NCBI RefSeq assembly: GCF_006517175.1 | Contig: NZ_CP041186.1 | Coordinates: 868,001-932,000 of the forward strand | Direction: 5' to 3' | Origin: Persicimonas caeni | GTDB taxonomy: Bacteria; Myxococcota_A; Bradymonadia; Bradymonadales; Bradymonadaceae | DNA length: 64,000 nucleotides | Shown: positions 27,547-30,947 of the stretch, piece by piece | How the letters are laid out: each line of letters begins with the position of its first letter | How positions within the stretch are numbered: the stretch's first letter is position 1 | Notes under the pieces: model-generated | Database searches by the model: none | Told to the model about the DNA's origin: nothing | Seen by the model: only the letters and a program-made list of their open reading frames with translations | Translations under genes and position numbers: made by a program

Positions 27547-28917
27547 TTAGAAAAGGTACAACAGCAGCATCATCACCGGCCCGGTCACCAGCATCACGAA
27601 GCCGGTGTAGCCGATGATGTCCTTGGCTCTGAGCCCCATGATGCCCAACAGCGGCAAGGCCCAAAACGGCTGGAGCATATTGGTCCAGGCGTCGCCGTAA
27701 GCGAGCGCCATGATCGCTTGTTGCGGGGGCACGCCGAGGGTGTCGACCGCCTGCATGATTACGGGCCCCTGCACCGCCCACTGCCCGCCGCCCGAGGGCA
27801 CGAAGAAGTTGACGATGCCGGCCGACAAGAAGGTGAAGATGGGGAACGTGTCGGCGTTGGAGATATCGACGAAGAACTGGGCGATTTGCTCGATGAGCCC
27901 ACTCGCCTCGAGCAGCCCCAGAATGCCGAAATAGAACGGAAACTGCAGAATGATTCCCGCCGCGCCTTTGACGCCGTCGACGATCGCGTTGACGTAACTC
28001 GACGGCGAGGGGTGCAGCAAAATGCCCAGCGTCAAGAAGAGCAGGTTGATCGAGTCGAGGTTCCAGCCGCCGATGCCCTTCTCGGCGAAATAGTAGACCA
28101 GCACGCCCACGAGCAGCCCGCCAATGACCAGGTTGAGAAGGCGAGTGCGCTCGAGCACCTCGACCGCCGTTTTGGGCGGCGGCAGGTCGGTACTTTCGGC
28201 GTCGGCCTCCTCGAAGCTGTCGAGGGGGTACTGGACCATCTTGTCCGCGTCACGAGGCATCAGGCGCCAGAAGAGAAGCGGAATCAGCACCAGAAGCGTG
28301 CCGATGACGGTGATATTGAGCGTACCCAGCAGGGTCTCGCTGATCGGGATGACGCCGACGGCATCGGCCAAAAAGTGGCCCTCCTCGGCCACCTTGAGCG
28401 GCGCCGAGCCCGAAAAGCCGCCGTGCCACACCAGAAAGCCGGCATAGCCCGCAGCGCCTAGCAGCGGGTAGTGCACCGGCTGGCCGCGCTTGGCGAAGGC
28501 GCGGCCCATCTCGCGGGCCATGAAGGCACCGGCGATCGCGCCCAAGCCCCATTGAATCAGACTCGCCGCGCAGGCCACCAACGACACGACGACCACCGCG
28601 GCCCCAGGCGTCTTCGCCACCCCGGCGAACCTCTCGATGGCCGAGCGCACCGGCTTCGACAGCGCGAGCGCGTGGCCGGTGACCAGCACGATCACCATCT
28701 GCAGGGCGAACTTCATCAATCCGGTGCCGTAAAACGCGCCGAACCACCCATCGGCCAACGCCTCCAGACGCTCCGGAAAGCTCAGCTCGGCGACGGCTTC
28801 GCCGAACACGGCGGCCAGCACCAGGGTCAGCACGGTCAGGAGCACGGCGAGCACGAACGGCTCGGGCACGTAGCGCTCCGACAACTCGCTCAACTTGTCA
28901 CCGAACGCCTGTATCAC
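27547..28917 (-). CDS. Short-chain fatty acid transporter, AtoE family
   Basis: 456 residues from GTG 28917, chosen because it overlaps the xseB stop as GTGA (4 bases), a coupling arrangement. About twelve hydrophobic segments span the protein. Conserved motifs of the family (TIGR00366/PF02667) are visible: QWGLGAIAGAFMARE, YAGFLVWHGGFSGSAPLKVA, and near the C-terminus FFVPSGGGQWAVQGPVIM and YGDAWTNMLQPFWALPLLGI. AtoE-type permeases move acetoacetate and short-chain fatty acids across the inner membrane. No ato catabolic genes are adjacent; the link to the exonuclease genes looks positional only. Confidence 0.92.
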   Translation of the reverse strand: MIQAFGDKLSELSERYVPEPFVLAVLLTVLTLVLAAVFGEAVAELSFPERLEALADGWFGAFYGTGLMKFALQMVIVLVTGHALALSKPVRSAIERFAGVAKTPGAAVVVVSLVACAASLIQWGLGAIAGAFMAREMGRAFAKRGQPVHYPLLGAAGYAGFLVWHGGFSGSAPLKVAEEGHFLADAVGVIPISETLLGTLNITVIGTLLVLIPLLFWRLMPRDADKMVQYPLDSFEEADAESTDLPPPKTAVEVLERTRLLNLVIGGLLVGVLVYYFAEKGIGGWNLDSINLLFLTLGILLHPSPSSYVNAIVDGVKGAAGIILQFPFYFGILGLLEASGLIEQIAQFFVDISNADTFPIFTFLSAGIVNFFVPSGGGQWAVQGPVIMQAVDTLGVPPQQAIMALAYGDAWTNMLQPFWALPLLGIMGLRAKDIIGYTGFVMLVTGPVMMLLLYLF

Positions 28918-29162
28918 CCGTCGTCTCCTTGCGTGCTCTCGAGGCCGTCGATGATCGCTTTGACCTGCATCTCGGTGTTCTCGATCTTGTCGCGGCACAC
29001 CGTGATCAGCTTCGAGGCGCGCTCGACCTTGAGGGCCAGCTCGTCGAGGTCGACTCCGTCGTTGTCGATCTCGTCGAGCAACGACTCGAGCTCCTCCATC
29101 GCCTGGGTGTAGCGAATCTCGTCGGCGTTGGGCTCGCTGGTATTCTTGTCGGCAGTTGTCAT
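28914..29162 (-). CDS. xseB: Exodeoxyribonuclease VII small subunit
   Basis: 82 residues, the normal size. The coiled-coil core is YTQAMEELESLLDEIDND and LDELALKVERASKLITVCRDKI, the XseB hallmark. Several XseB copies wrap the long coiled coil of one XseA to make exonuclease VII, which degrades single-stranded DNA from both ends. It lies 36 bases downstream of xseA and overlaps the transporter gene by 4 bases. Confidence 0.95.
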   Translation of the reverse strand: MTTADKNTSEPNADEIRYTQAMEELESLLDEIDNDGVDLDELALKVERASKLITVCRDKIENTEMQVKAIIDGLESTQGDDG

Positions 29163-29198: not shown

Positions 29199-30947
29199 TC
29201 ACTGGGATTCGTCAGTATCTTGGTTGTCTTCGGCACGACGCACGGTCACCTGGCCCTCGGCCAGACGCACGTCGAGATCGGTGTCGAAGGGGACGTCTTC
29301 GGGGCGAAGAGCCACACCGTCGGGAGTCTGCAGGATCGCAAAGCCGCGCTCGAGGACGCGCTGCGGGTCGAGCAGGCGCAGCCGGCGGGCATGCTCCTCG
29401 ATACGCCGTTCCTGGTCGGTGAGCGCCTTGCCCGCCGCGCGCTTGAACCGGCGCATCATCCCGTCGAGCTCACGGCTCTCTCGCTGAAAGCGGCGCTCGA
29501 GACGCTCGCGCGACAAGCGCCTTTGGCCGAAGTCGAGCTTCTGGCGCTCGGTCCCCAACCGCGCCAGCGCCGCCGACGGGATCGCACGCTCGAGTCGGTC
29601 GAGCTGGCGCGTCGCCTCGGCGAGGCAATCTTTGACCGCGTAGGTCACGCCCGAGCGCACCCGGTCGAGTCGCTTGGTCTCGATCTTGAGGCATCGCTCC
29701 ACGGCGCGCTCGAGGCGCACCGACGCCTGGCGAAGCCGGAGCATCTCGTCTCCAGCGGAGTCGACCGCCCGCTCGGCGATGCGCGCGAACAGTTCCTCGA
29801 CCCGCTCCATGTAGTCTTGGACACGCGACACACACGCGTTGGCAGCTGCGGTCGGCGTCTTCTGCGAATCGGAGACGAAATCGAGCAAGCACTGGTCGCG
29901 TTGGTGGCCTACGCCGGTGACAATCTTGAGCGGGTGCTCGCACACCGCCTTTCCGATCGCGTCGGTGTCGAAATAGGCGAGATCGGAGCGCGACCCTCCG
30001 CCGCGCACAATCACCACCACATCGAAGTCATCGGCGCGCCCGGCGAAATAATCGAGCGCGCGCAGCACCGAGGGCTCGGTGCGGCTTCCCTGCACATTGG
30101 CGTCGTGCACGGTCACTGCGAAGCCCAGGCCCGAGCGCTCGAGTTCGTGAACAAAATCGTTGTAGGCATCGCTCTCGTAGCTGGTGATCAGTCCGACCCG
30201 CAACGGGCACTTGGGCCAGGGAAGCTTCTGGTTTTTGTCGCGGATGCCCCGCTTTTCGAGCGCCTTGAGGATGCGCTCGCGGTTTTGATGAATCTCACCG
30301 GTGGTATAGGCGGGGTCGATGCCTCGCACGACGAATTGGTACGAACCATGAGGCGCGTACAGATCGACGCGCCCCGACAAGCGCACGGCGAGCCCATCGC
30401 GAAGGCGGATGCTCTCGGGTGCGTTCTGGAGCGCATCGATAATCTTTTGTCGGTCGTCGCCAAACGCCACCGCCCGAATCCGCGCGACCGGATCTTCGTC
30501 GGGGGAGAGCCGCTCGACGAGCTCGAAATAGGCGTGGCCGCCGGGGCGGTTGCGGTCGTAGCTCTGCACCTCGCCGACCAACCACACGTCGTCGGAGAAC
30601 TTGTCGCGAATCGCGCGCCGAGCCTCCTCGTTGAGCTGCGAGATCGAGTAGGTCCCCTCGGGCACCCGAAGCGGACCGCCCTGCCCCGGCCCGTCGGAGA
30701 CGAGTTCGTCGATCGGCTGCAGGTTCTTCTCGCAGTAGCTACGAAGCGCCTGCGAAATCTTGAACTTGTGGTTGGCCAGCTTGCCGATGACATGGTCGGC
30801 ATGCTTCAGCGGCACGTACCAATTCTTGGTGCCCCCGTCGAACCAACGACCGGGCAGCGAGCGCACCACGGGCAGAAGGCTCGCATCGTAGGGGAAAATG
30901 ATGCAGATGCGCTGCGCTTCGGGTTCGATGTCGAGAAGTCGTGACAC
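29199..30947 (-). CDS. xseA: Exodeoxyribonuclease VII large subunit with extra N-terminal HARP-like domain
   Basis: 582 residues, about 120 longer than E. coli XseA. The standard parts are present: N-terminal OB fold (YSISQLNEEARRAIRDKF...WLVGEV), catalytic region (CPLRVGLITSYESDAYNDF, VVIVRGGGSRSDLAYFD, VTGVGHQRDQCLLDFVSD), and the long C-terminal coiled coil. The extra first 75 residues contain FPYDASLLPVVRSLPGR, W35 and W43 in a TK-W-VPL context, the pattern of the HARP-like motif of annealing helicases. GTG 30947 is the likely start, 26 bases after crcB. This makes a single-strand nuclease with a possible fork- or junction-recognition module. Confidence 0.9.
   Translation of the reverse strand: MSRLLDIEPEAQRICIIFPYDASLLPVVRSLPGRWFDGGTKNWYVPLKHADHVIGKLANHKFKISQALRSYCEKNLQPIDELVSDGPGQGGPLRVPEGTYSISQLNEEARRAIRDKFSDDVWLVGEVQSYDRNRPGGHAYFELVERLSPDEDPVARIRAVAFGDDRQKIIDALQNAPESIRLRDGLAVRLSGRVDLYAPHGSYQFVVRGIDPAYTTGEIHQNRERILKALEKRGIRDKNQKLPWPKCPLRVGLITSYESDAYNDFVHELERSGLGFAVTVHDANVQGSRTEPSVLRALDYFAGRADDFDVVVIVRGGGSRSDLAYFDTDAIGKAVCEHPLKIVTGVGHQRDQCLLDFVSDSQKTPTAAANACVSRVQDYMERVEELFARIAERAVDSAGDEMLRLRQASVRLERAVERCLKIETKRLDRVRSGVTYAVKDCLAEATRQLDRLERAIPSAALARLGTERQKLDFGQRRLSRERLERRFQRESRELDGMMRRFKRAAGKALTDQERRIEEHARRLRLLDPQRVLERGFAILQTPDGVALRPEDVPFDTDLDVRLAEGQVTVRRAEDNQDTDESQ

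What the first reader, a model, noticed from the sequence alone, without database searches (positions are those of the whole stretch)
29199..30947. HARP-like domain fused to the N-terminus of exonuclease VII large subunit
The XseA homologue is 582 residues against about 455 in E. coli. The extra first 75 residues contain a compact motif: FPYD at 18-21, LPGR at 31-34, W35, a TK-W-VPL stretch (40-47) and a following basic helix. This reads like the HARP motif of SMARCAL1-type annealing helicases, where it binds forked or junction DNA. A single-strand nuclease carrying a fork-recognition module would be an unusual repair or phage-defence arrangement. The rest of XseA is intact.
Basis: partly seen in the sequence, partly recalled or inferred. 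Interest (0 to 1): 0.72.

Follow-up and report, generated by a model that had tools for sequence, protein, structure and literature searches.

The report
Exonuclease VII with HARP-like DNA-recognition domain
A bacterial enzyme that trims single-stranded DNA carries an extra front domain related to the fork-recognising HARP domain of the human repair helicase SMARCAL1; the fusion is kept across many relatives in two phyla, which suggests a version of exonuclease VII that is steered to DNA junctions.

Summary
The minus-strand ORF 30947-29199 encodes an intact 582-aa XseA, with xseB just downstream. Residues 1-75 lie outside the OB fold, which begins near residue 99. A profile of 24 such N-termini picks SMARCAL1 HARP out of the whole PDB at E=3e-7 (next hit 0.35). 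Pfam HARP matches 21 of 24 at E up to 1; the window protein alone scores 21.7 bits against a cut-off of 25. AlphaFold gives a confident small alpha/beta domain (pLDDT 91) whose nearest solved structures include the archaeal XPB damage-recognition domain and SMARCAL1 HARP. The extension is conserved about as strongly as the OB fold, present in nearly every same-family genome, and found in planctomycetes; all HARP-bearing XseAs fall in one well-supported clade of a divergent XseA subfamily, and it is normally the genome's only XseA. Best explanation: a junction-recognising module that tethers exonuclease VII to the duplex side of flaps, gaps or forks. That function is inferred, not shown. There is no support for phage defence. 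It is a new domain architecture of known parts.

The parts
29199..30947 (-). xseA, exonuclease VII large subunit with N-terminal HARP-like domain, 582 aa, GTG start
   Evidence: TIGR00237 xseA 310.7 bits, cut-off 180
30723..30947 (-). HARP-like domain, residues 1-75
30657..30722 (-). poorly conserved, probably flexible linker, residues 76-97
   Evidence: 23% identity; pLDDT under 50 at 85-92
30312..30656 (-). OB-fold ssDNA-binding domain, residues 98-212
29778..30311 (-). nuclease core, residues 213-390, with D264, R315, H348, D351 matching E. coli D155, R205, H238, D241
29202..29777 (-). long coiled coil and C-terminal beta part, residues 391-582
28914..29162 (-). xseB, exonuclease VII small subunit, 82 aa, directly downstream
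   Evidence: PF02609 5e-12; adjacency repeated in most relatives

Best explanation
The protein is a working exonuclease VII large subunit to which a HARP-like DNA-recognition domain was fused, apparently once in evolution. The most likely mechanism: the HARP-like domain binds the duplex or junction side of a structured substrate (flap, gap edge, stalled or reversed fork), the OB fold holds the adjoining single strand, and the nuclease trims that strand towards the junction. ExoVII is thereby steered to single-strand/double-strand junctions instead of acting only on free ssDNA ends. Shown here: sequence homology of the module, its predicted fold, its conservation, the single clade, the intact catalytic residues and the xseB partner. 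Inferred: DNA and junction binding by the module, and the geometry.
For: The profile of the N-termini hits SMARCAL1 HARP (4o66) at 3.2e-7, next hit 0.35; repeated with planctomycete sequences at 4.1e-7. Pfam HARP matches 21 of 24 members (best 7.5e-8) and 23 of 26; one full-length XseA passes the cut-off, 26.3 of 25 bits (L013). The AF2 model of residues 1-84 has pLDDT 91.4; 4o66 rmsd 2.0 A over 49 residues at 24% identity, archaeal XPB DRD Z 6.3. The same module sits at the N-terminus of SNF2 helicases in Solirubrobacterales (hhalign probability 98.6), of a phage SNF2-type helicase and, as XPB_DRD, of XPB-type helicases. Residues 1-75 are conserved like the OB fold, 50% against 53%. The XseA tree has one HARP clade, support 100/97, two label changes in all. 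[quoted passage not shown]
Against: No DNA-binding data. The window protein alone is below Pfam's HARP cut-off. Structure scores are modest: Foldseek E 0.18-0.28, Z 3.9 to 4o66, and unrelated folds score as high. The published DNA-binding residues of HARP could not be read, so they could not be checked. In SMARCAL1 the domain works beside an ATP-driven motor, which ExoVII lacks.
Confidence: 0.62

Rival explanations
1. The domain is a HARP/XPB-DRD homologue but acts only as an unspecific extra DNA grip that raises affinity or processivity, without preference for junctions.
For: Closest solved fold is the XPB damage-recognition domain, and related modules sit on SNF2 helicases, XPB helicases and a tyrosine-recombinase-like fragment, proteins that share DNA binding more than fork binding.
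Against: The best sequence match is SMARCAL1 HARP, not XPB; published work calls HARP junction-specific (PMC4666394).
Confidence: 0.22
2. The domain is a protein-protein docking or assembly module (for example for SSB, the clamp or a helicase partner) and does not bind DNA.
For: It is joined by a variable flexible linker, as docking modules often are; small alpha/beta folds are versatile.
Against: Conserved W43, F62 and the R29/R34 positions shared with HARP proteins; the related modules occur on DNA enzymes.
Confidence: 0.1
3. It is part of a phage-defence arrangement.
For: A nuclease with a sensing module is a common defence layout (general knowledge).
Against: No PADLOC match; neighbours are crcB, xseB, a fatty-acid transporter and an S49 peptidase; sole XseA of the genome and stable through the family.
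Confidence: 0.03
4. Chance resemblance: a lineage-specific N-terminal extension unrelated to HARP.
For: Single-sequence scores are weak and structural Z to HARP is only 3.9.
Against: Profile E-values of 3e-7 and 4e-7 with nothing else near; profile match to SNF2-helicase N-termini in another phylum.
Confidence: 0.03

Closest known systems
E. coli exonuclease VII large subunit XseA (PDB 8txr)
   Same: OB fold, nuclease core with all four catalytic residues, long coiled coil, partner XseB
   Different: E. coli lacks the N-terminal domain; HARP-XseAs belong to a distinct, long-branch XseA subfamily
HARP domain of SMARCAL1 (PF07443, PDB 4o66)
   Same: Sequence motif, order of elements, conserved Trp; profile E 3e-7, 2.0 A over 49 residues
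   Different: In SMARCAL1 it precedes an SNF2 motor; here it precedes a motor-less ssDNA nuclease
XPB damage-recognition domain (PF18458, PDB 2fwr)
   Same: Best structural match, Z 6.3, 2.3 A over 57 residues; 4 of 26 members match the Pfam model weakly
   Different: 12% identity; the sequence profile does not reach XPB chains in the PDB
HARP-like N-terminus of Solirubrobacterales SNF2 helicases (L093-L103)
   Same: Very similar motif FPYD..LV..VR.LPGRRFD....W..P; hhalign probability 98.6
   Different: Attached to an SNF2 helicase; only about 40 residues align

Membership tests
Exonuclease VII large subunit (XseA) | Exonuc_VII_L and OB domains above curated cut-offs | tested here: met
   PF02601 233.7 bits, PF13742 64 bits; TIGR00237 310.7 of 180 bits
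Exonuclease VII large subunit (XseA) | Catalytic residues D155, R205, H238, D241 (E. coli numbering; their role is from my own knowledge) | tested here: met
   D264, R315, H348, D351, invariant in 34 sequences
Exonuclease VII large subunit (XseA) | xseB partner gene | tested here: met
   PF02609 at 28914-29162; adjacent in most relatives
HARP domain (PF07443) | Window protein above Pfam's curated score | tested here: not met
   17.6-22 bits against 25; a relative, L013, reaches 26.3. Hence called HARP-like
HARP domain (PF07443) | Profile homology to a solved HARP domain | tested here: met
   4o66, E 3.2e-7 and 4.1e-7
HARP domain (PF07443) | Fold: five-stranded beta-sheet packed on two helices (PMC4666394) | tested here: inconclusive
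   Model has four strands plus a short bridge at 63-64 and helices 25-29, 47-60, 66-75; 2.0 A to 4o66 over 49 residues but Z only 3.9
HARP domain (PF07443) | Binds forked or ss/ds junction DNA | not testable with these tools
   needs binding assays
SMARCAL1-type annealing helicase | SNF2 ATPase motor after the HARP domain | tested here: not met
   P0001 has no helicase domain
XPB_DRD (PF18458) | Pfam match to XPB_DRD | tested here: not met
   no match for P0001; 4 of 26 relatives match weakly, best 0.0011
Anti-phage defence protein | Match to a PADLOC model or defence neighbourhood | tested here: not met

The most novel reading that the evidence does not exclude
A previously undescribed exonuclease VII subfamily, spread over Bradymonadia and Planctomycetota, that recognises replication forks or other junctions through a HARP domain and replaces ordinary ExoVII in these bacteria, so that a nuclease without a motor is aimed by the same module that aims eukaryotic fork-reversal helicases.
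Probability: 0.5. Interest if true: 0.68.

Novelty: new variant of a known kind. Interest (0 to 1): 0.55.

Why it matters
It would show that the HARP / XPB-DRD module is a portable DNA-structure sensor used outside helicases, and it gives a natural experiment on how exonuclease VII chooses its substrates. It makes a testable prediction: this subfamily should prefer flaps, gaps or forks over free single strands.

Tried and rejected
Scan of genome contigs with the whole protein found nothing; alignment A1 was too diverse for pattern scans, so the closer set A2 was used. A2 found no relative in viral contigs. Of the phage XseAs listed, nearly all match only from about residue 88 on; the one apparent exception, MT836401, is a bacterial xseA-xseB contig without the domain. 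Plasmids gave no match to a HARP consensus. The whole-genome PF07443 search missed the window gene because it is under threshold. The 2014 HARP structure paper and Ghosal 2011 are not held; no paper links exonuclease VII and the HARP domain in the held library (the three papers are unrelated), which lacks most subscription papers. f5 XseAs have a 70-residue N-terminus that may be a much diverged HARP, but hhalign gives probability 18.7 only: left open. That the Bradymonadia HARP-XseAs form one clade is neither shown nor rejected (AU p 0.23), so transfer between the phyla against shared ancestry is undecided. Filing the module as XPB DRD was considered; structure favours that, sequence favours HARP.

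Full report
What is there. On the minus strand, 30947 to 29199, lies a 582-codon gene with a GTG start. It is exonuclease VII large subunit: TIGR00237 310.7 bits against a cut-off of 180, Exonuc_VII_L at 237-569 and the OB domain at 100-210. The small-subunit gene xseB follows at 28914-29162. E. coli ExoVII aligns from residue 99 by sequence and by structure (8txr, Z 21, 99-523 to 9-396), so the first ~98 residues are an addition and not part of the OB fold.

Is the addition real and constrained? In the window's family, 20 of 21 genomes have the profile match; the one without it gave no XseA match either. Relatives start at the same place with MARMIDIE-type sequences. Within the family, mean pairwise identity is 50% for residues 1-75, 23% for the linker 76-97, 53% for the OB fold, 62% for the nuclease core and 30% for the coiled coil. 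So the module is held by selection and the linker is not. W43 and F62 are invariant in 34 full-length proteins, together with the catalytic D264, R315, H348 and D351.

What is it? The window sequence alone gives Pfam HARP 21.7 bits, below the cut-off of 25, and a weak PDB hit to SMARCAL1 HARP, E 1.3. A profile of 24 relatives raises that to 3.2e-7 with the next PDB hit at 0.35; a second mix that includes planctomycetes gives 4.1e-7. One relative passes Pfam's cut-off in full length (L013, 26.3 bits). AlphaFold2 predicts residues 1-84 at pLDDT 91.4, with strands 4-8, 13-17, 35-37, 42-46 and helices 25-29, 47-60, 66-75. Among solved structures the top rows are archaeal XPB damage-recognition domains (Z 6.3, 2.3 A over 57 residues), and SMARCAL1 HARP aligns at 2.0 A over 49 residues with 24% identity but Z only 3.9. 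Unrelated folds score similarly, so the structural evidence supports the sequence evidence but would not stand alone. I call it HARP-like, of the HARP / XPB-DRD group.

Where else is the module? In Solirubrobacterales (Conexibacter and MAGs) the same motif stands at the N-terminus of SNF2 helicases, profile-profile probability 98.6. In another family of the window's phylum it is the DRD of XPB-type helicases. Arthrobacter phage Laroye carries it on an SNF2-type helicase. These contexts are all enzymes that act on DNA.

How far does the fusion reach? In the class, 31 of 57 genomes have the profile match; families f1, f2, f4 and f6 carry it, f3 and f7 carry canonical XseA without it, f5 has an unclear N-terminus. 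In the phylum 34 of 379. In Planctomycetota 25 of 294, and nearly all loci examined are XseA ORFs, the exceptions being a contig-end fragment and one 118-residue solo ORF; 134 of 149 planctomycete genomes have some XseA. In Actinomycetota 5 of 246; the cases examined are SNF2 helicases and one recombinase-like fragment, none XseA. HARP-positive genomes mostly show a single XseA match, the doubles being split contigs or split alignments, so this form probably does the general work of ExoVII.

History. A tree of the XseA core (HARP columns left out) puts all HARP-bearing XseAs in one clade with support 100/97, with one member whose module has decayed (L025). This clade lies within a divergent subfamily set off by 100/100 and a branch of 1.39 changes per site; canonical XseAs are all outside it. 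The label needs two changes, which fits one gain and one loss. Whether the two phyla share it by descent or transfer is open.

How it likely works. ExoVII cuts single-stranded DNA from its ends (general knowledge). [quoted passage not shown] The simplest model is that the HARP-like module grips the junction or duplex, the OB fold the single strand, and the nuclease trims towards the junction. Junction preference is inference. The main rival is a general DNA grip. A protein-docking role is less likely. A defence role has no support.

Novelty. Both parts are known; the combination, its spread and its single origin I did not find described in the held papers, which do not include most subscription journals. 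Domain databases would list some members, since at least one passes Pfam's threshold. New variant of a known kind.

Origin of the window. The genome is one 8.05 Mb contig and groups in one family with a genome whose contig matches Lujinxingia vulgaris NZ_VOSL01000048.1 in length and place, order Bradymonadales. Persicimonas caeni would fit the size, from memory only.

Noticed in passing
L063-L067, first ~75 codons of xseA: XseAs of family f5 have a different 70-residue N-terminus with invariant W, D, W, F and G positions; perhaps a much diverged HARP-like domain (hhalign probability 18.7).
   Followed up: partly
L173:2504-4168: Arthrobacter phage Laroye gp95, an SNF2-type helicase, has a HARP-like N-terminus and lies next to a gene annotated as exonuclease (Cas4 family in the related phage Edmundo).
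   Followed up: partly
L170, 170-aa ORF on the minus strand: A HARP-like N-terminus followed by a tyrosine-recombinase-like C-terminal piece in an actinobacterial genome; suggests the module may also be used by integrases.
   Followed up: no
L114:1378-1731 (G546:C20): A 118-residue ORF holding only the HARP-like module, in a genome that has another HARP hit in a 585-residue ORF elsewhere.
   Followed up: partly
L025 (G022): An XseA of the HARP clade whose N-terminal module has decayed.
   Followed up: partly
MT836401.1 (L062): A record labelled Bacteriophage sp. carries a bacterial xseA-xseB-polyprenyl synthase cluster, so it is probably not phage DNA.
   Followed up: yes
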